Source of the DNA: Ruminiclostridium papyrosolvens DSM 2782
GTDB lineage: Bacteria > Bacillota > Clostridia > Acetivibrionales > DSM-1351
NCBI RefSeq assembly: GCF_029318685.1
Contig: NZ_CP119677.1
Span: 3,091,001 to 3,155,000 of the forward strand
Direction of reading: 5' to 3'
DNA: 64,000 bases
In this document: positions 8,105-24,028 of the stretch, in pieces
Layout: every line of letters begins with the position of its first letter
Position numbering within the stretch: the first letter of the stretch is position 1
Notes under the pieces: model-generated
The model's input: the letters and a program-made list of their open reading frames with translations, nothing else
Databases searched by the model: none
Told to the model about the DNA's origin: nothing
Program-made: the position numbers and the translations under genes

Positions 8105-8129
8105 AACCCGTTGGAACTTCCAACGGGTT
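8105..8129 (-). terminator. Intrinsic terminator after ftsZ
   Basis: Perfect inverted repeat AACCCGTTGGAA/TTCCAACGGGTT around one base, followed on the minus strand by TTTTTT. Confidence 0.88.
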
Positions 8130-8164
8130 GTAAATGCGATAAATTAACTTAATTTATGCTCTAT

Positions 8165-9307
8165 TTATTTAAATCTATTTCTTCTCAGAAAAGTTGGTAT
8201 ATCAAGTTCATTGTCAACTGACATTGAACCTGAGGTATTCTTCTCTTGGGAAATTGAACCGTAACTACCGCTTTCAACAGATGCTGAAGCATTTGTTGTT
8301 ACAGAATTTTTAACTACTTTTTCAACGGGCTTCTCAGTCTTCTTAAGAATAGGACTAGTCTCAAAACCGGTTGCAATAACTGTTATCATAAGTTCATCCT
8401 TGAGATTGTCATCAATAACAGCTCCAAAAATTATATTTGCTTCGGGATCAGCAGATTTCTGAACCAGTTCAGCTGCAGTATTTACTTCAAACAGCCCCAA
8501 ATCAGGTCCTCCTGTAATATTTACAAGAACTCTCCTTGCTCCCTCAATTGATGTTTCAAGAAGGGGACTTTGGATTGCCTGTTTTGCTGCATCTTCCGCC
8601 CTGCTTTCACCGGATGCTCTTCCAACACCCATGTGAGCTAAACCGGAACTAAGCATTATTGTTTTTACATCGGCAAAGTCAAGATTTACCAATCCGGGAA
8701 CTGCAATCAAATCTGAAATACCCTGCACACCCTGACGTAGTACATCATCAGCCATTCTGAAAGCCTCTACCATTGTTGTTCTCTTCTCAACAACCTGAAG
8801 AAGTCTGTCATTTGGAATTGTTACCAAAGAGTCAACTGAATTTTTAAGGTTTTCTATTCCTCTTTCAGCATGCTGCATACGGGTTCTGCTTTCAAACATA
8901 AAAGGTTTTGTAACAACAGCTACTGTAAGAATACCCATCTCTCTTGCAAGTTGTGCTACAACAGGAGCAGCTCCTGTTCCTGTTCCGCCTCCCATACCGG
9001 CAGTAACAAAAACCATGTCGGCACCCTTTATGGCTTGAGCAATCTCATCTCTGCTCTCATTTGCTGCTTTTTCTCCGGTTTCAGGATTTGCACCGGCACC
9101 AAGCCCTTTAGTAAGCTTGTCGCCTATCTGAATCTTTGTATTGGCTTTTGATAAAAACAATGCCTGCTTATCAGTATTAATCGCTATAAAATCCACGCCT
9201 CTTAACCCGGCTGCTATCATCCTGTTAACGGCATTATTACCACCGCCGCCGCAACCAATAACTTTTATTTGGGCAAAATGGTCCATGTCAATTTCGAAAT
9301 CTAGCAA
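8165..9307 (-). CDS. ftsZ: Cell division protein FtsZ
   Basis: Tubulin-like GTPase that forms the division ring. The protein has 380 residues. The nucleotide-binding [13 protein letters not shown] and the tubulin signature GGGTGTG (107-113) are intact, as is the T7-loop region. A variable linker (about 320-360) leads to the C-terminal interaction peptide [13 protein letters not shown]. The start codon is TTG, with GGGGGA seven bases upstream; no ATG in the vicinity has a site. It follows ftsA with a 153-bp gap that may carry its own promoter, and ends at a strong terminator. Confidence 0.98.
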
Positions 9308-9460
9308 TTTAAATCCCCCTTTAGCATTTGTAATAAAACTTGATGTGTATATCTATTAAATTAAACGGAATAAATTGTCTTTTTTTATATATAGCGTAGA
9401 AAAACACATATTAATACTATATATTATAAAAACAAATTAGGCAAGTTTTGATTTTATTAC

Positions 9461-10705: not shown

Positions 10706-10756
10706 CGAACTGACCCCCTAAATGTGTATCTATAGTACTTTGCACAATATTTTAAT

Positions 10757-11119
10757 CTAAACATCCTCTTTTACTATATTATCTTTTTTAAACGTTTTAT
10801 TCAATAGATATCTTCTAATTAAAGCAAAGTTTAAGAAAAGTCTGTTACCGAAGGCAAAAATAGCTGCAAAGTATATTTGTATTCCCAGTTTGTCCCCAAT
10901 ATAAGCAAGACCGGCAGCAAGCAACGCATTACCAAAAAAGCCTGACAGGAATACTCTCATCTCAAATTTTTTGTTTATTGACGCAACTATTCCTCCAAAA
11001 ACAGAGTCTAATGCAGCTAGTATAGCCACCGCCACATATGTAAAATACTCTGATGGTATTGTAATTGGAATAAACATCCCTGCAATTATTCCCAGAATTA
11101 ATCCTAAAATCGGTATCAT
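10757..11119 (-). CDS. sbp: Small basic protein (DUF1290 family)
   Basis: Small integral membrane protein of the DUF1290/Sbp family, found between ftsQ and ftsA in many Firmicutes; function unclear. The start at 11119 is preferred because GGAGG precedes it by five bases; a longer frame begins at 11140 without a site. The 120 residues have about four hydrophobic segments (MIPILGLILGIIAGMFIPI, then three more) and a basic C-terminus. Confidence 0.9.
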   Translation of the reverse strand: MIPILGLILGIIAGMFIPITIPSEYFTYVAVAILAALDSVFGGIVASINKKFEMRVFLSGFFGNALLAAGLAYIGDKLGIQIYFAAIFAFGNRLFLNFALIRRYLLNKTFKKDNIVKEDV

Positions 11120-11155
11120 ATTAACCTCCATAAGCCACAATATTATGTATTTTAA

Positions 11156-11995
11156 TTATTCAGCCGGAGCAAAGAACGGATACTTGCCTGTGGTAAAATC
11201 CAGTGTACCCTTTTGCTTGGCATTAATATTATTAACAAAAAAATTCCTTAAGAACCCTATTTTATAATCCAATTCATCCATGTCACCAAACTTCACTGTA
11301 ACCCTGTTTTCAAACACAGCTGTTATAACACCGGGATCAGACATATTAACTACAGTCAGCCTTGGATACATCTTTTGTTTAGTATCCTTATCATTTTTTA
11401 TAAGGGCATTACAAAAAATCATCAAGTCACTCAGTGTATCTTTATTCTTAAATTTTAACTCTTGTCCCAACTTAAAGCTATCCAACGAATTACCTATTAT
11501 TTTGATATATTTCTTTTTTTCATTTTGATTTGTAATAACTTCCAATGCAAACCCCTGTTTATCAATTAACAGACTTGTCCCTTTAATATCCAGTATGCAA
11601 TAAGGTGTTCTCTCAGTAACCTTAATTTTTATGGATTTGGGTAGAGATGGCCTTATACTGATAGAGCTTATATACGGCATAGATTCAGAAACTGCTTTTT
11701 CCTTGTCTCCAAACTTCAGAGTTAACAGATTCTTTGGTTTCTCTCCAAGCATTTTGAACACATTCTGGCCTGTAACAAGCCCTGAACGTAAAATTATTTC
11801 GTTGGCCTGATATTTTTTATTGCCTGTAACCTTTATGTTATCTACTATAAAAACTGAAGAACGGACGAATAAAACAGCCGCCGTCACAATCACAACAAGT
11901 GTAAATAACTTTTTGAGCCTTCTTATTTTAAATCTGTATTTCTTTTTCTTTTTATCTTTTGTAGTTTTTAAATTTTTCTTTTGACTGTTATTCAT
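11156..11995 (-). CDS. ftsQ: Cell division protein FtsQ/DivIB (POTRA domain)
   Basis: Bitopic membrane protein of the divisome. The 279 residues comprise a very basic cytoplasmic tail (1-28), one transmembrane segment (about 29-48), a POTRA domain (FIVDNIKVTGNKKYQANEII...) and the FtsQ/DivIB beta domain. It starts only six bases after the murA stop and has no strong ribosome site of its own. Translation is therefore probably coupled to murA, which suggests that murA is the ancestral upstream partner of this operon. Confidence 0.92.
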   Translation of the reverse strand: MNNSQKKNLKTTKDKKKKKYRFKIRRLKKLFTLVVIVTAAVLFVRSSVFIVDNIKVTGNKKYQANEIILRSGLVTGQNVFKMLGEKPKNLLTLKFGDKEKAVSESMPYISSISIRPSLPKSIKIKVTERTPYCILDIKGTSLLIDKQGFALEVITNQNEKKKYIKIIGNSLDSFKLGQELKFKNKDTLSDLMIFCNALIKNDKDTKQKMYPRLTVVNMSDPGVITAVFENRVTVKFGDMDELDYKIGFLRNFFVNNINAKQKGTLDFTTGKYPFFAPAE

Positions 11996-12001
11996 TCGCT
12001 T

Positions 12002-12946
12002 TTATACCCTAATAATTTTTGCGCCTAAAGCAGACAGTTTATCTTCTATTTTATAGTAGCCTCTGTCAATATGCTCAAGACCAGTAATTATAGTTTCTCC
12101 TTTTGCTGCTAATCCGGCAAGAACCAAAGCCGCACCTCCACGTAAATCTCTTGCTGCAACCTGCGCTCCATTAAGGCTGTCAACACCTTTTATGACAGCT
12201 ACACGACTGTCTATTCTGATGTTTGCACCCATCTTTAAGAGTTCGTCAACATGTTTATATCTGCTTTCAAATATTGTCTCAATTACAATGCTGGTACCCT
12301 TACATATAGAAAGCAATGTCATCAGCTGTGCCTGCATATCCGTCGGAAATCCCGGATACGGCAATGTACGCACTACCTCAACGGCATCTAGCCGTGTTCC
12401 GGCATTCATCTGTATGTCATTCCTTTTTATGGAAATCTGACAGCCAATATCCCTTAACACCGATGCAATTGATATAATATGTTCAGGTATAATGTTCTTT
12501 ATTGTTACATTGCCGCCTGTAATAGCAGCAGCAACCATATATGTACCTGTAATTATCCTGTCTGGGATTACAGTATGCTCAACATTATTGGGCTTTTTCT
12601 CAAGGCCTTTAATTCTTATAACCCCTGAGCCTGCTCCGGTAACCTTTGCCCCTATTTTTTGAAGAAAATTCTGCAAATCTACAATCTCGGGCTCTTTTGC
12701 TGCGTTTCTGATAATAGTGTCACCCTGTGCATAAACAGCAGCTATCATTGTATTTTCCGTCGCCCCTACACTTGGATAATCAAGGTAAATTTCGCAACCC
12801 TTCAGTCCGTCTGTCTCGCATAATATGTAACCGCCGCTAATATCATCTATTTTTGCACCAAGGCTTCTTAGTGCTTTTAAATGTAAATCAATAGGTCTTG
12901 GGCCTAATTCACAACCACCTGATTGTGTTATATTGTTGTCATCATA
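12002..12946 (-). CDS. murA: UDP-GlcNAc 1-carboxyvinyltransferase MurA, 3' part of a split gene
   Basis: C-terminal 304 residues of MurA, which transfers enolpyruvate to UDP-GlcNAc in the first committed step of peptidoglycan synthesis. True MurA sequence begins at the GGT codon 12916-12914, followed at once by the catalytic Cys in GGCELGPRPIDLHL. It then runs without defect to the stop. The eight to ten codons before that point (12946-12917) do not resemble MurA and end at an in-frame TAG. The first ATG is at 12748, inside the fold, and I see no usable start upstream, so this part alone should be inactive. The missing first 114 codons are at 23476-23817. The frame is undamaged, which argues against long neglect. 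Confidence 0.95.
   Translation of the reverse strand, partial: YDDNNITQSGGCELGPRPIDLHLKALRSLGAKIDDISGGYILCETDGLKGCEIYLDYPSVGATENTMIAAVYAQGDTIIRNAAKEPEIVDLQNFLQKIGAKVTGAGSGVIRIKGLEKKPNNVEHTVIPDRIITGTYMVAAAITGGNVTIKNIIPEHIISIASVLRDIGCQISIKRNDIQMNAGTRLDAVEVVRTLPYPGFPTDMQAQLMTLLSICKGTSIVIETIFESRYKHVDELLKMGANIRIDSRVAVIKGVDSLNGAQVAARDLRGGAALVLAGLAAKGETIITGLEHIDRGYYKIEDKLSALGAKIIRV
12902..12935. other. Left junction of the segment splitting murA (attL-like)
   Basis: MurA coding sequence ends and foreign sequence begins at the shared CACC (12916-12919). The inner arm, 12920-12935, is TGATTGTGTTATATTG. It is nearly the reverse complement of the inner arm at the right junction (23461-23476). I infer a recombinase half-site. 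Confidence 0.65.
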
Positions 12947-12954
12947 CTATAATA

Positions 12955-12984
12955 ATTATATCATAATGTAATATTGCCCATCAA
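12955..12984 (-). promoter_or_regulatory. Outward SigA-type promoter toward murA 3' part and ftsQ
   Basis: TTGATG at 12984-12979 and TATAAT at 12960-12955, spaced 18 bp, read leftward out of the inserted segment. It could supply transcription to ftsQ-sbp-ftsA, which the insertion has cut off from the murA upstream region. Confidence 0.5.
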
Positions 12985-13029
12985 TGCGATATAAAACATA
13001 AGAAAATTGTTAAAAATCAAAATAGTATA

Positions 13030-13057
13030 TTTAAAAGCAAACTCAAGATGATATAAT
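13030..13057 (+). promoter_or_regulatory. Candidate promoter for murT-gatD
   Basis: TTTAAA at 13030-13035 and TATAAT at 13052-13057 with a 16-bp spacer, about 50 bases before the murT start. Confidence 0.4.
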
Positions 13058-13109
13058 GTTTACTAAAAGTTATTTAATTTTTGGTTTTTAAAATTACTTA
13101 GGAGAACAT

Positions 13110-14513
13110 ATGAACTTAAGAAAAGTACTGACAATAATAATATCAAAATTAACCATAAGAATACTCAGATTACTGAAAAAAGGCGGCACGACCCTGCCCG
13201 GCAAGGTTGCGTTCAAATTATATCCGGATATTCTGAAATCAATAGCAAAAGACTTTGAAATAATCATGGTTACGGGAACTAACGGAAAGACAACAACTTC
13301 CAGAATTATTGAAGAAATTCTAAAAAATAATAATGTTGATTACATAACCAACAAATCGGGTGCAAACTTATTAAGCGGTATAACTACAACTTTTATACAG
13401 GCTGTTTCTCCCTTGGGAAAGCCAAAACATAAAACCGCCCTTATTGAAAGTGATGAGGCGGCATTTAATCAGGTTACAAAACATCTCCAACCAAAATCTG
13501 TAGTCGTTACTAATTTTTTCAGAGACCAGTTGGACCGTTACGGGGAACTATATTCTACATTAAATGCTGTTAAATCCGGTTTGGACAGGCTGGATGAAAA
13601 AACTACCCTTATACTCAATGCCGATGATTCAATGTGTGCGTCACTTGGTCACAAAACCGAAAAACTTGTATTTTACTATGGTTTCGGTGAAGCGGCAAGT
13701 CAACAGAGTTCTGAAAATATCAATACGGATGCCATGTTCTGTATTTTCTGCAAAGGGAAATATCAGTACAAAAGCCATGTATATGGCCATTTAGGCGGAT
13801 TCTATTGCCCTGAATGCGGATATTCAAGACCCGTGGCAGACCTTGAATGTATTGGTATTGAAGAAGCCGGTAGCAACCATACAACCATCAGATGGAAATG
13901 TTCAAAAGCCTTGGACACCGACGAATCTGAGTATACTACTCAGATTAATCTTCCCGGTCTCTATAATGTATACAATGCAATGGCTGCCGCAACCTGTGGT
14001 CTTTCCCTTGCATATAGTCATGAAACAGTGCAGAAGGCTGTAGAATCCTTTGAATGCGGCTTCGGCAGAATGGAAACCATCAATGTTGGAAATAAATCAA
14101 TAAAATTAATCCTTGTAAAAAATCCAACGGGATTTAATCAGGTACTTAACTTCCTGACCCTTGACAAGCAGCCCTTGAATATAGCCTTCCTTATTAATGA
14201 CAAGCTGGCTGACGGGACAGATATTTCCTGGCTGTGGGATGTTGATTTTGAACATCTGAATACTGCAGGTGACAGAATCGTTAATCTTATAACCTCGGGT
14301 ATTAGAGGTGAGGATATGGCTGTACGTCTTAAATACAGCGGCCTAGATACAAAGAAAATCAGAATAATAAAAGACTACCATAGGGTTATTGATGAGGGAC
14401 TAAAAGCTGTTGCTGACGGAGGATGTTTTTATATCCTTCCTACTTACACAGCTATGTTGGATATCAGAGGTATTTTAAAGAAAAAGTTTAACTTAAAGGA
14501 GTTCTGGAAATAA
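13110..14513 (+). CDS. murT: Lipid II isoglutaminyl synthase, MurT subunit
   Basis: Mur-ligase-like subunit that, with GatD, amidates the D-Glu of the lipid II stem peptide. The 467 residues carry the ATP-binding loop MVTGTNGKTTTSR (53-65), the central ligase domain, an inserted Cys4 ribbon (CIFC ... CPECG) typical of MurT, and the C-terminal DUF1727 domain. AGGAGA precedes the ATG. gatD follows after two bases, so the two are co-translated. They are the first genes within the segment that splits murA, an association of two cell-wall loci that may be coincidental. Confidence 0.96.
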   Translation: MNLRKVLTIIISKLTIRILRLLKKGGTTLPGKVAFKLYPDILKSIAKDFEIIMVTGTNGKTTTSRIIEEILKNNNVDYITNKSGANLLSGITTTFIQAVSPLGKPKHKTALIESDEAAFNQVTKHLQPKSVVVTNFFRDQLDRYGELYSTLNAVKSGLDRLDEKTTLILNADDSMCASLGHKTEKLVFYYGFGEAASQQSSENINTDAMFCIFCKGKYQYKSHVYGHLGGFYCPECGYSRPVADLECIGIEEAGSNHTTIRWKCSKALDTDESEYTTQINLPGLYNVYNAMAAATCGLSLAYSHETVQKAVESFECGFGRMETINVGNKSIKLILVKNPTGFNQVLNFLTLDKQPLNIAFLINDKLADGTDISWLWDVDFEHLNTAGDRIVNLITSGIRGEDMAVRLKYSGLDTKKIRIIKDYHRVIDEGLKAVADGGCFYILPTYTAMLDIRGILKKKFNLKEFWK

Positions 14514-14515
14514 AT

Positions 14516-15262
14516 ATGTATCAATTAAAAATTTGTCATTTATACCCTGACCTTTTGAACACCTACGGAGACATGGGAAACATACTTGCTCTGAAAAGAC
14601 GTGCTCAGTGGCGCAATATTGATGTAACAGTAACCAATGTCACAATCGGAGACAGCTTCGACTCGGAAGAATACGATATTATTTTCCTCGGAGGCGGTCA
14701 GGATTACGAGCAGGAGATTATCCAAAACGATGTACTGCTTCAAAAGGGAGCAGAAATAAAAAATGCAGTTGAAGGAAGTAAGGTATTCCTATGTATATGC
14801 GGCGGATATCAGCTCATGGGAAAATACTATAAGACCTGGGACGGAAAAGAGCTTGAATACTTGGGTGCACTTGATTTATGGACAATCGGCGGTAAGGAGA
14901 GAATGATAGGCAATATTGTATTTGAAAGCGGTTTGATTTCAGATAATGGCTCACCTCTCAAAATCGTTGGATTTGAGAATCATTCGGGACGCACATATCT
15001 CGGTGATAATGTTCGTCCTTTGGGTAAGGTTCTTTCAGGTAATGGTAATAATGGTACTGATGGGTTTGAAGGTGCTGTTTACAAAAATGTATACTGCTCC
15101 TATTCACATGGAAGCCTCCTGCCTAAAAACCCTCATCTGGCAGATCATCTTATATCTATGGCACTAAAGCAAAGGTATAATGAATTTGAGGGCCTTACTC
15201 TGTTAGAAGATGAGTTTGAGAACGCAGCAAGAATTACCATGCTGCAGAGGCTACTAAAATAG
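14516..15262 (+). CDS. gatD: Lipid II isoglutaminyl synthase, glutaminase subunit GatD
   Basis: Class I glutamine amidotransferase-like (CobB/CobQ type) subunit that supplies ammonia to MurT. The 248 residues have the nucleophile Cys95 in the elbow FLCICGGYQLMG and the histidine in the conserved SHGSLLPKNPHLAD near residue 200. It is two bases downstream of murT. The length and motifs match functional GatD proteins. Confidence 0.95.
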   Translation: MYQLKICHLYPDLLNTYGDMGNILALKRRAQWRNIDVTVTNVTIGDSFDSEEYDIIFLGGGQDYEQEIIQNDVLLQKGAEIKNAVEGSKVFLCICGGYQLMGKYYKTWDGKELEYLGALDLWTIGGKERMIGNIVFESGLISDNGSPLKIVGFENHSGRTYLGDNVRPLGKVLSGNGNNGTDGFEGAVYKNVYCSYSHGSLLPKNPHLADHLISMALKQRYNEFEGLTLLEDEFENAARITMLQRLLK

Positions 15263-15329
15263 TGTTAGCCATAAAAAACCATTGACTTTTTATTATAGTG
15301 CATGTTACTATAGTTCTAATACAATATTT

Positions 15330-15612
15330 GTAAGTAAATGTGATGAATGGGAAAAGTAAACTTTACGAGTCTTTAAAGCGAGCAGTGGTCTGGTGGAAGC
15401 ATTGCAGGATAGTATTTTTGAAGTTCTCCCATGAACAGTTGGCTGAACCTTTTATGTAGGTCATACCGGGTCTTTCCCGTTACAGGAAGAAGTGTATCGG
15501 AATTTTATTTGTTTTCCCGTACATGATTGAGTGGGTTTTACCAATTTGGGTGGTACCGCGTAGGCTATAAGTCTTCGTCCCTTGTTTATAGGGATGAGGG
15601 CTTTTTTATTAT
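15330..15612 (+). promoter_or_regulatory. T-box riboswitch upstream of the DAHP synthase
   Basis: A tRNA-sensing leader. The T-box core TGGTACCGCG is at 15551-15560, and an intrinsic terminator (stem around 15572-15602, then TTTTTTATT) follows. Stem I is closed by ATGGGA/TCCCAT, and an AGTA turn is visible on the 5' side. The specifier region reads TTTGAAGTTC; aligning it to the tyrS leader in this window suggests TTC (Phe), but I hold that loosely. Uncharged cognate tRNA would switch on DAHP synthase. Confidence 0.9.
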
Positions 15613-15685
15613 CTAAAACCCAGAAATGCTCACTAGTTTGCTTGAGACATTTGTATTAAAAAATTAATTTGCGGAGGGTAAAGTT

Positions 15686-16699
15686 ATGATTATTGTAATG
15701 AAGCAAAGTGCGACTGTAAAGGATATTGAAAACGTTGAAAACAGGCTGCTTGATTTAGGTTTTAAAACCCATCCCATTCACGGAGATATAAAAACGGTAA
15801 TCGGAGCAATCGGTGATAAAAGGCTTCTGAATGTTCACGCTATATCCCAGATGCAAGGTGTAGAAACTCTTGTTCCAATTATGAAACCGTATAAACTTGC
15901 AAGCAATGAACTTCAACATACACCAACCGTTATAGACATCGGCGGTGTTAAAATAGGCGGTGAAGAAATTGTCGTTATGGCAGGACCCTGTGCCATAGAA
16001 AATGAAAAGGATTTTGTTGATACTGCTATAAGTGTAAAAAACAGTGGTGCTAAAATCCTTAGAGGCGGTGCCTTCAAGCCGAGAAGTTCTCCTTATGCAT
16101 TTCAGGGACTTGAAGAAGACGGTCTCAAAATAATGGTTGCAGGTCGTGAGGCTACCGGTCTTAAAATGGTTACTGAGGTTGTGGATACCAGAGATGTAGA
16201 GCTTGTAAATAAATATACAGATATCTTCCAGATTGGCGCAAGAAATATGCAGAATTTCAGGCTATTAAGTGAGGTTGGAATGACCCGCAAACCTGTACTT
16301 TTGAAAAGAGGTCTGTCTGCCACTATTGAAGAATGGCTTATGGCTGCTGAATATATAATTGCAGAGGGAAATCATGAAGTTATTCTTTGCGAGCGAGGTA
16401 TACGTACTTTTGAAACAATTACCAGAAATACCCTTGATTTAAGTGCAATTCCCGCAATAAAGGATGTTTCTCACCTTCCCGTTGTTGTTGACCCCAGTCA
16501 TGCCACCGGTAATTGGAAGTATGTTCCTGCACTTGCAAAGGGAGCTATAGCTACCGGTGCAGACGGTCTTATAATTGAGGTTCACCCTAATCCCCCATGC
16601 GCATTGTGTGATGGTCCCCAATCACTAAGGCCGGAGAGATTCAAAAGTCTAATGGATGAATTGAGATTAGTGGCTCAAGCAGTACAAAGAACTATTTAA
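15686..16699 (+). CDS. aroF: 3-deoxy-7-phosphoheptulonate (DAHP) synthase
   Basis: Catalyses condensation of phosphoenolpyruvate and erythrose-4-phosphate, the entry step to aromatic amino acids. The 337 residues have an N-terminal ferredoxin-like regulatory domain (1-70) and a TIM barrel with VVMAGPCAIENE, GGAFKPRSSPYAFQG, the QIGARNMQNF segment and the metal-binding DPSHATG. This is the type I beta architecture. GGAGGG precedes the start. It is a single-gene unit controlled by the T-box and closed by a terminator at 16708-16747. Confidence 0.96.
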   Translation: MIIVMKQSATVKDIENVENRLLDLGFKTHPIHGDIKTVIGAIGDKRLLNVHAISQMQGVETLVPIMKPYKLASNELQHTPTVIDIGGVKIGGEEIVVMAGPCAIENEKDFVDTAISVKNSGAKILRGGAFKPRSSPYAFQGLEEDGLKIMVAGREATGLKMVTEVVDTRDVELVNKYTDIFQIGARNMQNFRLLSEVGMTRKPVLLKRGLSATIEEWLMAAEYIIAEGNHEVILCERGIRTFETITRNTLDLSAIPAIKDVSHLPVVVDPSHATGNWKYVPALAKGAIATGADGLIIEVHPNPPCALCDGPQSLRPERFKSLMDELRLVAQAVQRTI

Positions 16700-16707
16700 T
16701 CTATACC

Positions 16708-16747
16708 AAAAAGGAAAGCTACTGATGAATCAGTGCTTTCCTTTTTA
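16708..16747 (+). terminator. Intrinsic terminator after DAHP synthase
   Basis: AAAGGAAAGC pairs with GCTTTCCTTT around an inner ACTGA/TCAGT stem, followed by a T-rich tract. Confidence 0.85.
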
Positions 16748-16760
16748 TTTTTTGTGTCTT

Positions 16761-17108
16761 CTATACTATGTATTCCATATCGGCAGGCCTATACGTAATA
16801 ACGTCATCCTCATTAGAAATAACCTGCATACAATCAACCCCGCTGTAATTGAGTTTATCCGCTTCGTTTAGTTTAAGATACACTAAGGTGTTTTCAAATA
16901 TTTTAATGTTTATTCTGTCGAATATCTCCTTTTGCAAAATATCAATTATAGTATTGATATTTTCAATTGCCGAATGCATTGACTTCGATTCTATTATAAC
17001 GGGTATCCTGGAATTTGCGGGACTTAAAAGCTTTACATGAAGTATTCCGGGATCTATAACATTTTGTGTAGGATATAGCAAATCTCTCTCAAATAGAAGT
17101 GAATTCAT
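16761..17108 (-). CDS. Uncharacterised protein, 115 residues
   Basis: I do not recognise this protein. It has no signal peptide, membrane segment or metal motif. Residues 15-95 look like an alternating strand/helix alpha+beta domain (LHVKLLSPANSRIPVIIESKS, then a helix IENINTIIDILQKEIFDR and a strand pair). It ends in a short acidic tail. The frame is complete and codon use resembles its neighbours. It lies convergent to aroF and upstream of the lytic transglycosylase on the same strand, separated by 57 bases, so the two may be linked. Confidence 0.65.
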   Translation of the reverse strand: MNSLLFERDLLYPTQNVIDPGILHVKLLSPANSRIPVIIESKSMHSAIENINTIIDILQKEIFDRINIKIFENTLVYLKLNEADKLNYSGVDCMQVISNEDDVITYRPADMEYIV

Positions 17109-17165
17109 TTCTATTGCACCCTCCTAATCAGATATTACATTTTTCCTTACACTATAAAAATATCA

Positions 17166-17753
17166 CTATTTGTCATCAGCGTAAAGCTTTTTATACATTT
17201 TATAGTATTTTTGTATTCTTGAAACATAATTATCTGTTTCTTCAAAAGGTATAATGTTAAGGCTCTTTCCATCATGACTTTTTTCAGGGTCCTTCAGCCA
17301 CTTAGAAACATTTCCGCTGCCTGCGTTGTAAGCAGCCAATGCCAATACGGTATCATTATCAAACTGCTTTAACAAAGTTGCCAGGTACCAGCAGCCAATT
17401 TTTATATTGGTTTCGGGTTCAAGTAGCATACTATTTTCAAACTCTTTGATACCAGCCTTTTTGGCAGCCCACTCCCCCGTGCTATCCATTATCTGCATGA
17501 GCCCCTTGGCTTCTCTTGGAGAAACAGCCTTAGAATTAAAACTGCTTTCTGCTTTTATAACTGCATAAACCATATAGTTATCCAGCTTATATTGCCTAGC
17601 GTACTTCTCAACATACTCGGTATATTCCATAGGATATAAATACTCCAAAACATACCGTGAAGCAAATAGTCCGCCTGCTGCTATTATAACCAGTGTGATT
17701 AACACACCTAATAATTTTAAACCGCCTTTTTTCTTTTTCCTCAAAGAAATCAC
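17166..17753 (-). CDS. Membrane-anchored lytic transglycosylase (SLT domain)
   Basis: Cleaves peptidoglycan glycan strands non-hydrolytically to leave 1,6-anhydro ends. The 195 residues comprise a basic cytoplasmic start (RKKKKGG), one membrane segment (about 13-32), and a GH23/SLT domain with catalytic Glu69 in AVIKAESSF and the motifs AKGLMQIMDSTGEWAA and ALAAYNAG. Its start overlaps the coaE stop by four bases, so it belongs to a polA-coaE-slt operon. Size and layout resemble small Bacillus SLT proteins such as YjbJ. Confidence 0.93.
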   Translation of the reverse strand: MISLRKKKKGGLKLLGVLITLVIIAAGGLFASRYVLEYLYPMEYTEYVEKYARQYKLDNYMVYAVIKAESSFNSKAVSPREAKGLMQIMDSTGEWAAKKAGIKEFENSMLLEPETNIKIGCWYLATLLKQFDNDTVLALAAYNAGSGNVSKWLKDPEKSHDGKSLNIIPFEETDNYVSRIQKYYKMYKKLYADDK

Positions 17754-18361
17754 CTTAACAGCTTTTTAAACTGACTTTCCACTTCTTGTCTAAGGGTCGT
17801 CACATCATCATCATTATTGATAACTTTATTTGCGATACTTAAATATTCCTCATCGGAAATCTGGGATTTGATTCTTGAAACGGCTTCCTGATAGGTCATA
17901 CCGTTTCTTTTCATTATTCTTTCAACCCTTATCTCCATTTGCGCAAAAACCGTCCAAACCTCGTCACATAAATCAAGAAAGCCGTTTTTAATAGGAATGG
18001 GTGCATCAATAACAATAATCTTTGTCTGTTTTAGCAGCTGTTCTTCCACATTTTGTTGTATTTTTTGGACAACATATTTATGCACAATACTGTTCAAAAT
18101 CCTGAGTTTGTTTGCATCATTAAACACTCGAGCTGCCAGTTCCTTGCGATTAAGCTGTCCCCAATCATCAAGTATATCCTTACCGAACTCTTGTGTCAAC
18201 TCATCTAAGGCCATTTTCCCCGGCTCTACGACTTCTCTGCTTATTACATCTGCGTCAATTACAACAGCGCCAAGTTCTTTTAGAATACTGCTTACTGTAC
18301 TTTTCCCGCTTCCTATTCCACCTGTTACCCCTAAAATAATTGATTCGCTATTTTGTCTCAT
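17750..18361 (-). CDS. coaE: Dephospho-CoA kinase
   Basis: Final step of coenzyme A synthesis, phosphorylating the ribose 3'-OH of dephospho-CoA. The P-loop GVTGGIGSGKST lies at the N-terminus, followed by VVIDADVISREVVEPG and the lid region. I choose the ATG at 18361 (GGGGA nine bases upstream), giving 203 residues; an ATG five codons earlier has no site. The gene overlaps the end of polA, and its stop overlaps the next gene, so translation is probably coupled. Confidence 0.95.
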   Translation of the reverse strand: MRQNSESIILGVTGGIGSGKSTVSSILKELGAVVIDADVISREVVEPGKMALDELTQEFGKDILDDWGQLNRKELAARVFNDANKLRILNSIVHKYVVQKIQQNVEEQLLKQTKIIVIDAPIPIKNGFLDLCDEVWTVFAQMEIRVERIMKRNGMTYQEAVSRIKSQISDEEYLSIANKVINNDDDVTTLRQEVESQFKKLLR

Positions 18362-21038
18362 ACCAACTATCCCCATGTTTTACATCCACTGTTAAGGGCA
18401 CTTTTAATTGTACGGCATTTTCCATGCAATCCTTTAACAATTTTGAAACCTCTTCCAATTCAGATTTTTCCGTTTCCACAATCAATTCATCGTGCACCTG
18501 AAGAATAAGTTTTGACTTGAGTTTTCTCTTTTTCAGTTCATTATAAACTTTTACCATTGATATTTTTATTATGTCTGCCGCACTTCCCTGAATAGGCGTA
18601 TTCATAGCAACACGCTCTCCGAAGGAACGCATATTAAAATTACTGGATTTAAGCTCAGGAAGATATCTTCTTCTGTTATAAAGTGTTGTCACAAACCCAA
18701 ATTCTTTGCCTTTTTCAACAGTATCACTCATGTACTCCTTTACCTTTGAGTACTTGTCTAGATAGTCATCTATATATTGTCGAGCTTCCTTTTTGGTTAC
18801 CCCGATATCCTTTGACAGGCTGAAATCACCTATACCGTAAACTATACCAAAATTAACGGCTTTCGCCCTCGACCTCATTAAGGATGAAACCTCCTCAGGA
18901 GGTATTCCAAATACCTTTGACGCAGTAGTAGTATGGATGTCCTCGTTTTTTAAAAAGGCTTCTATCATGTTGGAATCATCTGTTATATGCGCAAGTACTC
19001 TCAGTTCTATCTGTGAATAGTCGGCATCCAGAAGTACATAATCCTGATTGGTGGGAATAAATACCTTACGTATTTTTCTTCCCATTTCCAGCTTTACAGG
19101 TATATTTTGCAAATTAGGCTCTGTACTGCTGATTCTTCCGGTTGCAGTTACTGTCTGGTTAAAGTTTGAATGAATCTTACCATCCTGTTCCAGAACAGAC
19201 AATAGTCCATCGGCGTATGTTGACTTGAGTTTCATCAGCTGTCTGTATTCAAGGATTCTTTCAACGATTTCATGCTTGTAAGAAAGTTGTTCCAGCACCT
19301 CTGCATTCGTTGAATATCCTGTCTTAGTTTTCTTTCCCACAGGCAGTCCAAGTTTTTCAAAAAGAATTACACCCAGCTGTTTTGGAGAATTAATATTAAA
19401 GGTCTCTCCTGCCTGCATGTATATTTCATTTTCAAGTATTACAAGTCTTGAATCCATTTCCTTTGAATATGCTTGCAAGCCTTCCACGTCAACTTTGAAG
19501 CCCCTTAGCTCCATATCAGCCAGTACCTCTACAAGAGGCAGTTCTATTTCATAATAAAGCTCATCTTGGCCGTTATCCCTGATAATAGGCCTCAGCTTCT
19601 GTATCAGCACATATATGGCATTTACCGCAGCAGCACAAACCTCGGATGAACTTATATCCTGTTCCTGTTGAAGTCTTTTGCCGTGCTTGTCATACAAAAT
19701 CTCAACAGGAGTAATACTTTGTTTGAGTTTATCTTCATACAACTCAGAAATCGTGTAGGTACTTCTGGTAGGTTCAAGTATATATGCTGCTATGAAGGTA
19801 TCAAATATTACATTTTCAAGCTCTATTCCATGAGATTTAAGATACTTGTATAAGTTTTTCAAATCATGTCCGTATTTTTCAATATCCTTACTCTCAAAAA
19901 TTTCTCGCAGTTCATTAAGAGCCTCTTGGCAAGTTAATTTTTCAGAGAAAACAATATTTGCGGGAGCATATTCCTCATTGCAGGCAAAAATACACAAATC
20001 ATCCATATAACTTCCTGTAGGGTCAACGTGATAATACACTGCTACCTTGCCGCTAAGCTTGATTGCACTTATATATGATTGTAAATCACTTATGGAATCA
20101 ACATCTAAATGTTCAATTTTTAAAGCTTCAGTTGCTTCTACAAAAGGAGTATTTTCCAGACCGAACTTTTCTATGAGAGTCTTAAATTCCAGACGTTTGA
20201 AGATACCATATAGAGCTTCCTTATCAGCTTCAGTCCTTGCAAAACTGCTTAGATCCTCCACTCCGGGAACTTTTCTATATATAGTAGCCAGCCTTTTACT
20301 CATAAAAGCAAGTTCTTTGTTATTCTCAAGTTTTTCACGAACGCCCTTTTTCTCCACTTTATCTATGTTTTCATACAATTCTTCTAAAGAGTTAAACTTC
20401 TGAATAAGATTAAGTGCAGTTTTTTCTCCGACACCTGGCACTCCGGGAATGTTATCCGAAGTATCTCCCATAAGCCCCTTTACATCTATAAGCTGCCCCG
20501 GTGTTACACCGTATTTCTCTACTACCTTCTCATAATCGTACTCATCTGTTTCGGTTTTATTACCTCTTGTTACAGGAAGTTTTATTCTTGTATGGCCGGA
20601 TGCCAACTGTAATGAATCCCTGTCTCCGGTTAATAGTATCGTTTTCAATCCCTGCTTTTCAGCATACGAAGAAACTGTTCCCAGTATATCGTCAGCTTCA
20701 AAGCCTTCAACTTCAACCCTTGCAATATTCATAGCATCCAAAACCTGTTTTATGATGGGAACCTGAACGGCCAACTCATTTGGCATTCCCTTTCTTTGGG
20801 CCTTGTATTGGTCATACTCCTTATGTCTGAAGGTAGGGGCTTTTAAATCAAACGCTACGCAAACATACTTTGGATTTTCATCCTGAAGATATTTTGAAAG
20901 TATATTTATGAAACCAAAAACCGCATTTGTATATAATCCCTCGGATGTTGTAAGCATAGCTGCTCTGCTTAGTCCGTAAAAAGCTCTGTTAAGTATACTG
21001 TTACCGTCTACAACTAAAATTTTGTCTTCAGAATTCAT
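18348..21038 (-). CDS. polA: DNA polymerase I
   Basis: Repair and Okazaki-fragment polymerase. The 896 residues comprise a 5'-3' exonuclease domain (about 1-290, with GLMGDTSDNIPGVPGVGEKTA) and a central 3'-5' exonuclease-like domain (about 310-490). The polymerase domain has motif A (LDADYSQIELRVLAHI), motif B (RSRAKAVNFGIVYG) and motif C (QVHDELIVE). The central domain starts VAVYYHVDPTGS where an active enzyme has an acidic DTE-type motif, so proofreading is probably lost, as in Bacillus PolI. The ATG at 21038 has GGAGG five bases upstream. It heads the polA-coaE-slt operon. Confidence 0.97.
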   Translation of the reverse strand: MNSEDKILVVDGNSILNRAFYGLSRAAMLTTSEGLYTNAVFGFINILSKYLQDENPKYVCVAFDLKAPTFRHKEYDQYKAQRKGMPNELAVQVPIIKQVLDAMNIARVEVEGFEADDILGTVSSYAEKQGLKTILLTGDRDSLQLASGHTRIKLPVTRGNKTETDEYDYEKVVEKYGVTPGQLIDVKGLMGDTSDNIPGVPGVGEKTALNLIQKFNSLEELYENIDKVEKKGVREKLENNKELAFMSKRLATIYRKVPGVEDLSSFARTEADKEALYGIFKRLEFKTLIEKFGLENTPFVEATEALKIEHLDVDSISDLQSYISAIKLSGKVAVYYHVDPTGSYMDDLCIFACNEEYAPANIVFSEKLTCQEALNELREIFESKDIEKYGHDLKNLYKYLKSHGIELENVIFDTFIAAYILEPTRSTYTISELYEDKLKQSITPVEILYDKHGKRLQQEQDISSSEVCAAAVNAIYVLIQKLRPIIRDNGQDELYYEIELPLVEVLADMELRGFKVDVEGLQAYSKEMDSRLVILENEIYMQAGETFNINSPKQLGVILFEKLGLPVGKKTKTGYSTNAEVLEQLSYKHEIVERILEYRQLMKLKSTYADGLLSVLEQDGKIHSNFNQTVTATGRISSTEPNLQNIPVKLEMGRKIRKVFIPTNQDYVLLDADYSQIELRVLAHITDDSNMIEAFLKNEDIHTTTASKVFGIPPEEVSSLMRSRAKAVNFGIVYGIGDFSLSKDIGVTKKEARQYIDDYLDKYSKVKEYMSDTVEKGKEFGFVTTLYNRRRYLPELKSSNFNMRSFGERVAMNTPIQGSAADIIKISMVKVYNELKKRKLKSKLILQVHDELIVETEKSELEEVSKLLKDCMENAVQLKVPLTVDVKHGDSWYETK

Positions 21039-21053
21039 TTGTGCCTCCATTAA

Positions 21054-22196
21054 TTATTTATCTGCAAAAGATATTCTTACCGTTATCATACCACTATTCT
21101 TTACAATCTCATCCATCTTTTGCGATAAATCGTCTCTTTCTTTTTCAAGAGTTACTGTGTTGTTACCTTTTACTTCCATATCGCTGATTTTTTGGCTCAC
21201 CACATTCCTCTGTTTTTCAAGTTCTTTATATTTCTCTGTAATATTTTCTTTTGTAACGGGTATCTTTATGCTAATGTCCAGATTATATTTATCATTAGCC
21301 AACTGCTGTATTTTAGTAAATGATTCTAAGGGAATGACATAATCACTATAACTACTATTAGCCATAATAGCTATAGTTTTGTCGTCAGCAATCAGTTCTT
21401 TGCCTCCCAACTCTGACATTAGCCCCTTTAAAGCCTCGTCTTTATTTTCTTTATCCTTAGTATCCGTATTCAAAATCACTTCAGCCGTATTTGAATAATA
21501 CTCCATAGGAGCGGCGGCAGTTTTTGTTCTGAATATAGATTCTTTTGAATCTTTTAATTTTTCATCCGCTTCTTGGATACTTTGGCTTGACTTTGATACA
21601 ACTTTATTTTCACCTTTTTCCTCAAAAACCCTCTTTTTCGGGTAATCTTTTAATGCACCACTGCCTTTGGCAGCTGGCATTTTGTCTGAGGACAAATGGC
21701 TTTCATTACTACTCTCTTGGGAATTAGGGTTTTGTACAGCTTCCTCCTTTGAGGCTGCCGCTGAATTCTTTGCAGCATCCTTAACACTATCCTCGGTTGA
21801 GGTAAAAGCAGTTGTACCAGACGAGATACTATCATTCTTACGATTTAAATTTGTATGAGGAAGCAGGCTGTATGCCAATAAAGTTAATACCAGTACAGCA
21901 GCCGTTGACAACCCCGCAATTAACTTTTTATTATATATAAACAATTTACCTTTATTTTGTTTTTGCTTATCTGCAACTTCTACAAGTCTGTCATGGAGGG
22001 AAGATGAAAAATTCTGCGGCAGCATTATATCGTCGCTTTCTCTGCACAATTCCACCAAAGCCAAAGCTTCTTTGACCTTTTGAGAACATTTACCACATTC
22101 ATTCAGATGATTTTCAAATTCTTCTTTTATTGCCTCTTCCAGCATGTCATCAATATATAAAGATACATAATAATCTGATTCCTTACAAAAATCCAT
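21054..22196 (-). CDS. Anti-sigma factor with zinc-finger and DUF4349-like domain
   Basis: Membrane anti-sigma factor paired with the ECF sigma gene upstream. The 380 residues start with a zf-HC2 module (HLNECGKCSQKV, about 28-40) that should hold the sigma factor. One membrane segment lies near 93-113. A long low-complexity Ser/Lys/Glu stretch (about 115-215) follows. The C-terminal extracytoplasmic domain contains TAAAPMEYYSNTAEVIL and a coiled coil (ITEKYKELEKQRNVVSQKI), like DUF4349 proteins. AAAGGAGG precedes the start, which is 20 bases after the sigma stop. The external domain probably senses an envelope signal. Confidence 0.85.
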   Translation of the reverse strand: MDFCKESDYYVSLYIDDMLEEAIKEEFENHLNECGKCSQKVKEALALVELCRESDDIMLPQNFSSSLHDRLVEVADKQKQNKGKLFIYNKKLIAGLSTAAVLVLTLLAYSLLPHTNLNRKNDSISSGTTAFTSTEDSVKDAAKNSAAASKEEAVQNPNSQESSNESHLSSDKMPAAKGSGALKDYPKKRVFEEKGENKVVSKSSQSIQEADEKLKDSKESIFRTKTAAAPMEYYSNTAEVILNTDTKDKENKDEALKGLMSELGGKELIADDKTIAIMANSSYSDYVIPLESFTKIQQLANDKYNLDISIKIPVTKENITEKYKELEKQRNVVSQKISDMEVKGNNTVTLEKERDDLSQKMDEIVKNSGMITVRISFADK

Positions 22197-22216
22197 TTCT
22201 ATTCCCTCCTTTCAAC

Positions 22217-22813
22217 TTATTTGACGTAATCGGTAAATAAATGTTCCTTATCCTTGCATAATAATTCTCTTAATTCATTTCTGGCCCTATTGATTCTTGA
22301 TTTCACAGTGCCTACGGGAACTTTCATGGTGTCCGATATTTCGTCATAGCTGAGTCCCATAAAATCACGGAGTATTATAACCAATCGGTTTTTTTCATTC
22401 ATTTTATCCATGGCTTCTTTAATGGCCTGTTTCTGAGCGTTGGTCTCTGCCACTTTTTCAGGCCCCGGATTTTCTGAAACCAAACTGTCTTTTAGCTGTA
22501 AATCTTCAAAAGTGTTTTGCTCTATGGAGATTACTTTCTTATTCTTGTGTTTTCTAATAAAGTCCAGACATACATTGGTTGCAATTCTGTAAAGCCACGT
22601 TGATATGGCGCAATTTCCCTTAAAGTCTTTTATGTACTTGAAAGCCTTTATAAATGTCTCCTGAGCCTGTTCATATGCATCTTCGGTGTTATTGAGCATC
22701 CTGTAGCAGATACTGTAGACTTTTGAATAGTATTCAGTCGTAAGCTCTTCAAATGCCCCTACGTCCCCGTTGCGTGCCTTTTGCAACAAGTTGTTTTCAT
22801 TTATTTTTTCCAT
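22217..22813 (-). CDS. ECF-type RNA polymerase sigma factor
   Basis: Extracytoplasmic-function sigma factor of the SigW/RpoE type. The 198 residues have region 2 (EDAYEQAQETFIKAFKYIKDF) and region 4 with the helix-turn-helix (LSYDEISDTMKVPVGTVKSRINRARNELR). Region 3 is absent, as expected. It is co-transcribed with the zinc-finger anti-sigma gene 20 bases downstream, which is the classic arrangement. The target regulon cannot be deduced from the window. Confidence 0.95.
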   Translation of the reverse strand: MEKINENNLLQKARNGDVGAFEELTTEYYSKVYSICYRMLNNTEDAYEQAQETFIKAFKYIKDFKGNCAISTWLYRIATNVCLDFIRKHKNKKVISIEQNTFEDLQLKDSLVSENPGPEKVAETNAQKQAIKEAMDKMNEKNRLVIILRDFMGLSYDEISDTMKVPVGTVKSRINRARNELRELLCKDKEHLFTDYVK

Positions 22814-23053
22814 ATTTTAGATCCTTACTTTTTTTATAGATCTGAAATGCCATTGTATCCAATAGCCCATAATATTGCAAGCCTTCATATTATTTAATAA
22901 CAATTATACCATAATAATGTACAACTAAAATGTAACTTTAAATTCATCATTTTGTATAATATTTACAAGCTTTTATTTTGATGAAGGTTTTTTGTATTCT
23001 ATATCGAATACTGTACTGGAATCAAAATAAATATACATAAGAAGGAGTATTCT

Positions 23054-23485
23054 ATGATTAGTACTATTCTTGTAACTGATGATAATATCCTGGACAATGC
23101 AATACTAAGAAATTATCTCTACAAAGAACGTGTTAATATAGTTTCAGTCCTTAATGGACGGGAAGCTCTGGATATGGTAGAAAACAGAAACGTTGACGTA
23201 ATAATACTTGATTTGGTAATGCCGGTTTTAGACGGGTTTGGTTTTCTTGAGGAATTCTGTAAAACGAATTCTTATAAGGAAATACCGGTAATAATAGCAT
23301 CCAATATTGAAATGGATGAAATTGAAAAAGTGTTGAATTACGATATTTATGATTTTATTCCAAAACCAATCAATAAGCTTAACAAAATGGTGGTAGTAAA
23401 TAAAGTTAGAAAAGCTATACAATTCAGAAAAATGATAAGTCAGCTTAAATTACTTGAATCCAAAGTAACACACTCACCCGGATAG
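23054..23485 (+). CDS. Stand-alone receiver-domain response regulator, 3' end altered by the murA junction
   Basis: Single receiver domain. The phosphoacceptor is Asp53 (VIILDLVMPVLDG), with acidic Asp9/Asp10 and the conserved lysine in PKPINK. After the domain comes a short helix (FRKMISQLKLLESK). AAGGAG precedes the ATG. The last codons cross the right junction: in the present arrangement the product ends THSPG at a TAG contributed by the murA side (143 residues). If the segment is circular, the frame continues THSPDCVILL... to a TAA at 12969-12971, giving 158 residues. No kinase is adjacent. Confidence 0.85.
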   Translation: MISTILVTDDNILDNAILRNYLYKERVNIVSVLNGREALDMVENRNVDVIILDLVMPVLDGFGFLEEFCKTNSYKEIPVIIASNIEMDEIEKVLNYDIYDFIPKPINKLNKMVVVNKVRKAIQFRKMISQLKLLESKVTHSPG

Positions 23486-23817
23486 CTTATAGTCACTTTT
23501 CCCTCTCTTGCCAGTATAGGACCCATAAATATTATTGATGATCTCATTTCTGCCGCAAGAGATTCAGGAACCTCTGTAGAAGATAATGTTGATGAATCTA
23601 CAGTCACAACGTTATCTTCTACTTTAACTTTGCAACCGATAGTCCTTAAGATTTCAATTATAACTTCCACATCCTTAAACATTGGACAATTCTTGATTAC
23701 ATTCTCGCCACGGTTAAGAATTGTAGCAGCCAATATTGGTAAAACAGCATTTTTTGCACCCTCAATTTCTATTTCACCTTTTAATTTTTTACCTCCCGTG
23801 ACTATTATTTTGCTCAT
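23440..23817 (-). CDS. murA: UDP-GlcNAc 1-carboxyvinyltransferase MurA, 5' part of a split gene
   Basis: N-terminal 114 residues of MurA: MSKIIVTGGKKLKGEIEIEG, the GAKNAVLPILAATIL motif (Lys in the substrate site) and AEMRSSIIFMGPILAREGKVTISYPG. MurA sequence stops at the Gly codon 23478-23476. The frame then runs a further 12 codons into the response-regulator gene on the opposite strand (ECVTLDSSNLS). The ATG at 23817 has GGAGG ten bases upstream and is preferred to a start seven codons earlier. Joined to 12916-12002 it gives a 418-residue protein of normal length with no gap, overlap or frameshift. It lies downstream of the CotF-like genes, past a large hairpin. Confidence 0.95.
   Translation of the reverse strand: MSKIIVTGGKKLKGEIEIEGAKNAVLPILAATILNRGENVIKNCPMFKDVEVIIEILRTIGCKVKVEDNVVTVDSSTLSSTEVPESLAAEMRSSIIFMGPILAREGKVTISYPGECVTLDSSNLS
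23461..23494. other. Right junction of the segment splitting murA (attR-like)
   Basis: The inner arm CAAAGTAACACACTCA (23461-23476) meets murA at the shared CACC (23475-23478). Outward is murA codon sequence for Tyr-Pro-Gly (TATCCGGGT on the minus strand). Arms on three of the four sides share TGnnTGTG when read outward from the centre, as expected for recombinase half-sites. Confidence 0.65.
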
Positions 23818-24028
23818 AATAAAAAACACCTCCGTCATTCCGGGACATTGTTAAAATTTGTAATGTCACTTTTTTTCACTCCTATTTTAAAGTTAATTAT
23901 AATAAATTTTATCTCGAAATATATGAAGCTTATAATAGCCCTATATAAAAAATTAAAATACAGATATATAAACCCCTATCCCTGCAATATCAGTTTATGC
24001 GTATGTGAATAAATTGTTACTCATGTTT

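What the first reader, a model, noticed from the sequence alone, without database searches (positions are those of the whole stretch)
12002..23817. murA is split into two perfectly complementary halves 10.56 kb apart
Codons 1-114 lie at 23817-23476 and codons 115 onward at 12916-12002, on the same strand. Both ends share CACC. Joining there gives 418 residues with YPGGCELG across the join, no gap, duplication or frameshift. Neither half shows a nonsense or frameshift mutation. The break falls one codon before the catalytic Cys, as if chosen to inactivate the enzyme fully and reversibly. I know of no described murA interruption of this kind.
Basis: partly seen in the sequence, partly recalled or inferred. 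Interest (0 to 1): 0.92.

Follow-up and report, generated by a model that had tools for sequence, protein, structure and literature searches.

The report
Split murA awaiting DNA rejoining
In Ruminiclostridium and many related spore-forming bacteria, a cell-wall gene (murA) is kept on the chromosome as two separate halves, each ending in half of a recombination site for a conserved DNA recombinase, so the gene can probably work only after the chromosome is cut and rejoined, most likely in the doomed mother cell during spore formation.

Summary
Of 40 genomes of its order (own included), 30 carry the same two separate murA halves; six genomes of other orders do too. Halves lie 2 kb to 607 kb apart, sometimes on opposite strands. 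Each half ends in a half-site of a large-serine-recombinase attachment pair: the non-murA arms are reverse complements of each other and co-vary within genomes. A conserved recombinase (LSR1), encoded elsewhere, tracks the split: 25 of 25 LSR1 genomes in a class sample are split; 0 of 7 genomes with intact division-cluster murA have it at 45% identity. Both halves are under strong purifying selection, including C-half codons before its first ATG. In R. papyrosolvens LSR1 is itself interrupted by an element carrying a second recombinase, yet both LSR1 parts remain constrained. polA and coaE lie between the murA halves, so joining by deletion fits only a terminal cell: the sporulation mother cell (inferred). 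This works like skin/sigK rearrangement, but the intervening DNA is ordinary chromosome and the recombinase is unlinked. Joined DNA was not observed. Nine paper searches listed no report.

The parts
23476..23817 (-). murA N-terminal half, codons 1-114 (frame stays open to 23440)
   Evidence: model positions 1-118 of TIGR01072; dN/dS 0.083 in the genus
12002..12916 (-). murA C-terminal half, codons 115-418; no start codon before the junction, first ATG at its codon 57
   Evidence: dN/dS 0.054, also 0.054 for the first 56 codons
23454..23499 (-). attL-like site: murA arm (AAAGTGACTATAAGCTATCCGGGT) + P' arm (TGTGTTACTTTGGATTCAA)
   Evidence: arm pairs mirror each other over 30 genomes (mean 12.1 of 19 identical, shuffled 5.5)
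12897..12942 (-). attR-like site: P arm (reverse complement TGTGTTATATTGTTGTCAT) + murA arm (GGTTGTGAATTAGGCCC)
   Evidence: 13 of 19 positions of P and P' identical in this genome
12955..12984 (-). sigma-A-like promoter TTGATG-18-TATAAT just outside attR; would let the division operon be read in growing cells without murA
   Evidence: consensus scan of 241 bases: 4 sites found on both strands against 2.3 expected in shuffles, so weak on its own
23980..24022 (-). conserved block upstream of the N-half, AC-N16-CATAAACTG; sigma-K-like (AC-N16-CATANNNTA) with one mismatch here
   Evidence: block shared by 10 of 11 genus genomes (not G007), CATANNNTA exact in 4 of those 10; sigma-K consensus recalled, not tested; coordinates
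12943..23453 (.). DNA between the att sites: murT-gatD, aroF, an unknown ORF, lytic transglycosylase, coaE, polA, DUF4349-like, ECF-like sigma, response regulator; no Resolvase-domain gene
   Evidence: ORFs, synteny, (none of 13 Resolvase-domain places lies in the window); only the response regulator was tested by Pfam, other names read from sequence
5341..11995 (-). genes downstream of the C-half, same strand: ftsQ, sbp-like, ftsA, ftsZ, spoIIGA, sigE, sigG
   Evidence: and ORFs; names read from sequence

Best explanation
The division-cluster murA is a gene in two pieces that is assembled by programmed site-specific DNA recombination. An ancestral large-serine-recombinase element inserted at the catalytic-motif codons of murA, splitting the dcw cluster (murE-murF-mraY-ftsW-murA_N / murA_C-ftsQ-sbp-ftsA-ftsZ). 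The element body was lost or scrambled by rearrangement, but three things were kept: the two hybrid sites (attL after murA_N, attR before murA_C), the open halves, and the recombinase gene LSR1, now an unlinked host gene. LSR1, probably with a directionality factor, recombines attL x attR and rebuilds murA: by deletion where the halves point the same way (as here), by inversion where they do not. In the window species LSR1 must first be rebuilt, because a 30.5 kb element with its own recombinase (LSR2) sits in it: a two-step cascade. As joining by deletion removes polA and coaE, it most likely happens in the terminal mother cell, supplying a sporulation-specific MurA, for example for cortex precursors. 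Shown: sites, co-variation, selection, co-occurrence. Inferred: the ancestral insertion, that joining happens, that LSR1 does it, the cell and the time.
For: Same split in 30 of 40 order genomes and in 12 of 12 further genomes picked by LSR1 or attL pattern, six of them from other orders. Non-murA arms are mutual reverse complements: 12.1 of 19 identical against 5.5 shuffled (0 of 2000), peak only at register 0. Arms match better within than between genomes: 40 genomes 12.38 v 10.75, one per family (16) 13.12 v 11.05, 0 of 5000 each. LSR1 was found via G015, whose only PF07508 recombinase it is; an intact orthologue has Resolvase, Recombinase and Zn-ribbon domains. LSR1 at 45% identity or more in 30 of 32 genomes with murA pieces, 0 of 7 with intact dcw murA (Fisher p 2e-6, kinship ignored). 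In 391 class genomes LSR1 in 25, all 25 split. dN/dS: halves 0.083 and 0.054, polA 0.061. 21 of 30 C-halves lack any in-frame start before the junction, and 0 of 30 have one with a Shine-Dalgarno-like 5-mer. Interrupted LSR1 still constrained: 0.020 and 0.060. SpoIVA in 24 of 25 LSR1 genomes v 278 of 391 overall. Intact dcw murA of four families lies among split ones in the tree, as if rejoined in the germline with LSR1 loss.
Against: No joined murA, circle or inversion was seen; no reads or expression data were available. Timing rests on essential genes between the halves (checked in nine genus genomes only), a weak sigma-K-like motif and SpoIVA co-occurrence, which is confounded by kinship. 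G255 has LSR1 and split murA but no SpoIVA match. G019 has an N-half but no LSR1 and no C-half (580 contigs, 92% complete). G037 has only a 40%-identical recombinase (beside the N-half) and arms agreeing at 4 of 19; G035 and G121 7 of 19. In the genus the P' arm strays from the consensus. Two more distant LSR1 relatives (38% and 44%) are in genomes without this split, and two intact-murA genomes have 31-35% identical recombinases. No linked partner ORF was found in G000 or six other genomes tested. LSR1 in G036 appears frameshifted. The tree is one gene, drawn without support values.
Confidence: 0.82

Rival explanations
1. Fossil: one ancient insertion split murA; the pieces are relics kept for other reasons, such as leader DNA of the ftsQ operon.
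For: Two other intact murA genes exist; a promoter-like site lies just upstream of the C-half.
Against: Purifying selection on both halves at the level of polA; no stops in 30 genomes with both halves and 2 with the N-half; half-sites co-vary; LSR1 goes with the split.
Confidence: 0.05
2. Split enzyme or trans-splicing: the halves are expressed apart and united as proteins or RNA, without DNA rearrangement.
For: Both frames open; the N-half has a start with a GGAGG-like site; an internal ATG exists at C-half codon 56-57 in the genus and 19 in the other families.
Against: 0 of 30 C-halves have a start before the junction with a Shine-Dalgarno-like site; codons before the internal ATG are as constrained as the rest; mirrored half-sites with a co-occurring recombinase; break inside the catalytic loop. 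Introns were not searched for with Rfam.
Confidence: 0.03
3. Recombination happens, but as reversible phase variation or under stress in growing cells rather than in the mother cell.
For: Opposite-strand halves (G012, G382, G121, G255) would give inversion, which loses no DNA; G255 lacks a SpoIVA match.
Against: In the window and the eight other genus genomes with both halves on one contig, polA and coaE lie between the halves; excision by such recombinases often needs an extra directionality factor (PMC5025042 passage); 24 of 25 LSR1 genomes have SpoIVA.
Confidence: 0.08
4. Another recombinase than LSR1 does the joining, LSR1 serving a different target that travels with the split.
For: Four genus genomes searched hold 18-24 PF07508 places each; in G000 LSR1 is interrupted; G019 and G037 lack a close LSR1.
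Against: G015 has a single PF07508 recombinase and a split murA; LSR1 tracks the split over families.
Confidence: 0.07

Closest known systems
skin element in sigK (B. subtilis SpoIVCA; C. difficile CD1231 + CD1234)
   Same: Gene in two halves, short common core, large serine recombinase; mother-cell timing is the expected context
   Different: There the recombinase, and in C. difficile its directionality factor, are genes of the prophage-like element (PMC5025042, passages). Here the DNA between is core chromosome, the recombinase is unlinked, and some genomes would need an inversion.
SPbeta/spsM, vfbin/spoVFB, gin/gerE, yin/yabG elements
   Same: Sporulation genes interrupted by elements with serine recombinases and rebuilt (PMC4191935, PMC5595907, PMC10747680, passages)
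   Different: Those are whole mobile elements inside one gene (yin is stated to be known from a single strain); here the arrangement is found in most of the order's genomes examined and beyond, in a peptidoglycan precursor gene of the dcw cluster.
nifD/fdxN/hupL rearrangements of heterocyst-forming cyanobacteria
   Same: Programmed joining of a split gene (named in a PMC4191935 passage; details recalled)
   Different: Element-encoded recombinases and no core genes between the halves (recalled).
Sporulation-specific dcw genes spoVE/spoVD
   Same: dcw-encoded wall genes specialised for sporulation in sporulating Firmicutes (PMC10693644, passages)
   Different: No DNA rearrangement in the passages seen; the term murA does not occur in its main text.

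Membership tests
Sporulation gene-intervening element (skin type) | Gene in two complementary halves with a shared core | tested here: met
Sporulation gene-intervening element (skin type) | attL/attR of a serine recombinase at the two ends | tested here: met
   (by sequence only)
Sporulation gene-intervening element (skin type) | Recombinase encoded inside the intervening DNA | tested here: not met
   no Resolvase-domain gene in the window; LSR1 parts at C1:3184950-3186041 and 3216577-3216963
Sporulation gene-intervening element (skin type) | Intervening DNA is a prophage-like or island element | tested here: not met
   polA, coaE, murT-gatD; distance 2.2 kb to 607 kb, both orientations
Sporulation gene-intervening element (skin type) | Directionality factor | tested here: inconclusive
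   small ORF directly upstream of LSR1 in 12 of 30 loci; a profile of it hit directly upstream of LSR1 in four of 13 held-out genomes (E 2.9e-5 to 0.11); no linked hit in G000; function untested
Sporulation gene-intervening element (skin type) | Rearrangement in the mother cell during sporulation | not testable with these tools
   needs cultures, PCR or reads
Large serine recombinase family (LSR1) | Resolvase + Recombinase + Zn-ribbon domains, catalytic Ser conserved | tested here: met
   (G004 copy); S31 of the first row of A1 invariant in 15 rows; its role as catalytic Ser is recalled
MurA | Joined halves make a full enolpyruvyl transferase with KN and Cys motifs | tested here: met
   sequence; each half's Pfam match; trees; residue roles recalled; activity not tested

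The most novel reading that the evidence does not exclude
A lineage-wide programmed remodelling of the mother-cell chromosome: a domesticated, unlinked serine recombinase rejoins the dcw cluster through murA by deleting core genes or inverting up to about 600 kb, and in some species it is itself switched on by a prior recombination (LSR2 removing its element from LSR1), a two-tier recombinase cascade.
Probability: 0.6. Interest if true: 0.95.

Novelty: new variant of a known kind. Interest (0 to 1): 0.92.

Why it matters
Known sporulation rearrangements excise a mobile element from one gene. Here a core wall-synthesis gene seems to have been kept in two pieces across many families, with the integrase turned into a host gene and the element body gone, so that a selfish insertion became a fixed developmental switch. 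It would mean that the mother cells of many clostridia, well-studied cellulose degraders among them, discard or invert large parts of their chromosome, polA included in the window's genus. It can be tested at once by PCR in harmless laboratory species (R. cellulolyticum, A. thermocellus), and offers a natural recombinase with co-evolved att arms for engineering.

Tried and rejected
Misassembly or strain-specific break: rejected, the same break is seen in many independent genomes. Paralogue patchwork: rejected by half-by-half trees. Local 10.56 kb mobile element: rejected, no recombinase and only chromosomal genes. A first arm comparison used a register wrong by one and gave no signal (4.87 of 20 identical against 5.74 shuffled); corrected. 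The register printed was off by three; corrected, where G073 was left out of the arm counts because its N-half alignment ran past the junction (G426 was not fetched). The first dN/dS run misaligned one genome with a codon deletion; redone. Promoter of LSR1: a conserved block was seen but no sigma type could be assigned. Reverse test over the class (split murA without LSR1) was not done: the listing would have been cut. LSR1 relatives at 38% (Peptococcaceae) and 44% (Pelotomaculum) are in MAGs without a split murA of this kind, while the 43% one (Oscillospiraceae SIG427) has the split. No structure prediction and no Rfam search was run.
Full report
OBSERVATION. The two murA halves are present as described, on the minus strand at 23817-23476 and 12916-12002. 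Joined they give a 418-residue MurA; Pfam EPSP_synthase matches profile 1-115 and 109-417 in the two frames. The genome (5,027,861 bp, one contig) has the length stated for Ruminiclostridium papyrosolvens DSM 2782 in the start of the abstract of PMC10701907 (listing). It also holds two intact murA genes and one distant homologue.

NOT A ONE-OFF. A murA profile search over 40 genomes of the order, own included, with loci fetched, shows both halves as separate pieces in 30 genomes, the N-half only in two (G019, G027), intact murA inside the division cluster in seven (G011, G017, G021, G025, G030, G032, G038), and one undetermined (G023, a 1.2 Mb MAG). Where intact, murA sits between the ftsW and ftsQ ends of the cluster: ftsW is on the fetched stretch in six of the seven (not G025), ftsQ in five (not L170, L178). 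Where split, the N-half has ftsW upstream in 20 of 21 loci outside the genus, and the C-half is followed by ftsQ in 29 of 30 loci; in the window's genus the N-half has moved beside trkH/tyrS (10 of 11 loci). Twelve more genomes chosen because they have LSR1 or the attL pattern are 12 of 12 split, six of them from other orders (G061, G073, G121, G215, G255, G276). On single contigs the junctions lie 2.2 kb (G073), 10.0-12.3 kb (nine genus genomes, G314), 23 kb (G013), 30.5 kb (G121), 38 kb (G255), 49 kb (G016), 91-92 kb (G364, G036), 254 kb (G260), 529 kb (G012) and 607 kb (G382) apart; in G012, G382, G121 and G255 the halves are on opposite strands.

ATTACHMENT SITES. Aligned over 30 genomes, the N-half ends AAAGTGACTATAAGCTATCCGGGT|GggTGTGTTActTTATtGgCAc and the C-half starts gTGCCAATAaaaTAACACAtCCgGGT|GGtTGTGAAATAGGCCC. 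The non-murA arms are reverse complements. On average 12.1 of 19 arm positions agree, against 5.5 after shuffling (maximum 7.0 in 2000), and only at register 0. With ten more genomes (40; G073 left out) within-genome agreement is 12.38 against 10.75 for arms paired between genomes, 0 of 5000 reaching it; with one genome per family (16), 13.12 against 11.05, 0 of 5000. This is the layout of attL and attR of a large serine recombinase: the murA arms would make attB, the mirrored arms attP. The window's own pair agrees at 13 of 19; the weakest are G037 (4), G035 and G121 (7).

THE RECOMBINASE. The 13 Resolvase-domain places of the genome all lie outside the window. G015, which has the split, has a single PF07508 recombinase; I call it LSR1. 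Orthologues at 45% identity or more occur in 29 of the 30 genomes with both halves and, as an N-part, in G027; G037 has only a 40% relative, directly beside its N-half; G019 none; the seven intact genomes 0 of 7, two of them (G021, G038) having a 31-35% relative. Fisher p for 30 of 32 against 0 of 7 is 2e-6, kinship ignored. In a class sample of 391 genomes LSR1 (E <= 1e-80) occurs in 25; all 25 have split murA (15, ten). The IMG/VR relatives kept are at most 34% identical, so it does not look like a known phage integrase. Named carriers are Acetivibrio mesophilus, Anaerobacterium chartisolvens and R. cellobioparum subsp. termitidis. From contig lengths (recalled) G382 is A. thermocellus ATCC 27405, G260 A. 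clariflavus DSM 19732 and G002 R. cellulolyticum H10.

NESTED ELEMENT. In G000 LSR1 is in two parts 30.5 kb apart: C1:3216577-3216963 and C1:3184950-3186041. The junctions share GGTACAACGAGC with mirrored arms, and a second recombinase gene, LSR2 (504 aa, same three domains), sits just inside. The same holds in G002, G005, G006, G008 (LSR2 81-89% identical) and, with LSR2 beside the N-part at 52-64%, in G003, G036 and G027; in G001 LSR1 is split but LSR2 was not on the fetched stretches. In G004, G007, G009 and G010 of the same genus LSR1 is intact. In the five interrupted close genomes (G000, G002, G005, G006, G008) LSR1 has median dN/dS 0.020 (N-part) and 0.060 (C-part), LSR2 0.139, 10 of 10 pairs each: LSR1 still seems to be used there. 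In G036 the LSR1 C-part shows a frameshift.

FUNCTION OF THE HALVES. In the genus (11 genomes, NG86, pairs with 0.05<dS<2) median dN/dS is 0.083 for the N-half (48 of 55 pairs), 0.054 for the C-half (21 of 55), and 0.054 for the first 56 C-half codons (35 of 55), which precede its first ATG; yardsticks from eight of the genomes: polA 0.061 (8 of 28 pairs), sigX 0.10, coaE 0.16, DUF4349 0.36. Of 30 C-halves, nine have any in-frame ATG/GTG/TTG before the junction and none with a Shine-Dalgarno-like 5-mer. So selection seems to see one joined protein.

TIMING. In the window's orientation joining removes 10.56 kb with polA and coaE; the same two genes lie between the halves in all eight other genus genomes with both halves on one contig. 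That is tolerable only in a terminal cell (inference). SpoIVA is found in 24 of 25 LSR1 genomes and 278 of 391 overall; Fisher p 0.0025, but kinship weakens this. Upstream of the N-half, ten of 11 genus genomes share a block resembling a sigma-K promoter, exact to the recalled consensus in four. In five loci an ORF that reads as the SpoIVA N-terminus lies beside LSR1; profile matches confirm it for G024 and G014. PMC10693644 (passages) reports that dcw-encoded SEDS and PBP enzymes of sporulating Firmicutes are sporulation-specific, which fits a sporulation-specific dcw murA.

CANDIDATE DIRECTIONALITY FACTOR. A basic ORF of 36-53 aa lies immediately upstream of LSR1 in 12 of 30 loci, picked by motif and eye. 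A profile of these, run on 15 whole genomes (13 not in the profile), gave hits right upstream of LSR1 in G024 (E 2.9e-5), G013 (0.0019), G028 (0.024) and G036 (0.11), and on the same contig and strand 4.7 kb upstream in G016 (2.7e-8) and 8.6 kb upstream in G009 (0.0056, with a stop inside). The other seven held-out genomes had no linked hit; in G000 the best (0.058) is elsewhere.

EVOLUTION. Trees from the N-half, the C-half and the join each separate dcw murA (split and intact, 37 of 54 sequences) from the paralogues by one branch, support 0.78, 0.75, 0.80. In a larger tree intact copies of four families lie among split ones, suggesting several germline rejoinings with loss of LSR1; it is a single-gene tree drawn without support values.

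LITERATURE. Nine searches listed no paper on a split or rearranged murA; several listings show only part of the hits (for example 10 of 106, 10 of 274), and only open PMC papers are held. Passages were read in PMC4191935, PMC5595907, PMC10693644, PMC10747680 and PMC5025042; the others were seen as listings with the start of the abstract only.

Noticed in passing
window 23054-23485: A response-regulator ORF runs head-on into the N-half: its last codons read through the P' arm and 10 bases of murA, which may explain why the P' arm drifts in this genus.
   Followed up: partly
window 24031-24072: A 19-bp perfect hairpin with a 4-base loop between the murA N-half and the Coat_F gene.
   Followed up: no
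window 24074-24343: Coat_F domain gene (spore coat) upstream of the murA N-half, same strand.
   Followed up: no
L164 (G000:C1:3195001-3215000): The element inside LSR1 carries very large YD-repeat (RHS-like, by eye) genes, one of 2765 aa, with similar stretches repeated in two further ORFs.
   Followed up: no
L436 (G073:C47): murT-gatD, in reverse orientation, lies between the two murA halves, which are only 2.2 kb apart: perhaps near the ancestral form, as murT-gatD flanks attR in many genomes.
   Followed up: partly
L134:3403-3714 and similar ORFs in L136, L138, L140, L143, L144, L145: Another small conserved ORF (..YEYASELNRILNS..) lies beside LSR1 in seven loci.
   Followed up: no
L376:4912-6074 (G036): The LSR1 C-part appears frameshifted near codon 266; either a dead copy or a sequence error.
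   Followed up: no
L063:7012-8637 (G037): A recombinase 40% identical to LSR1 lies about 1 kb downstream of the murA N-half, where an original integrase might sit; the att arms there agree least.
   Followed up: partly
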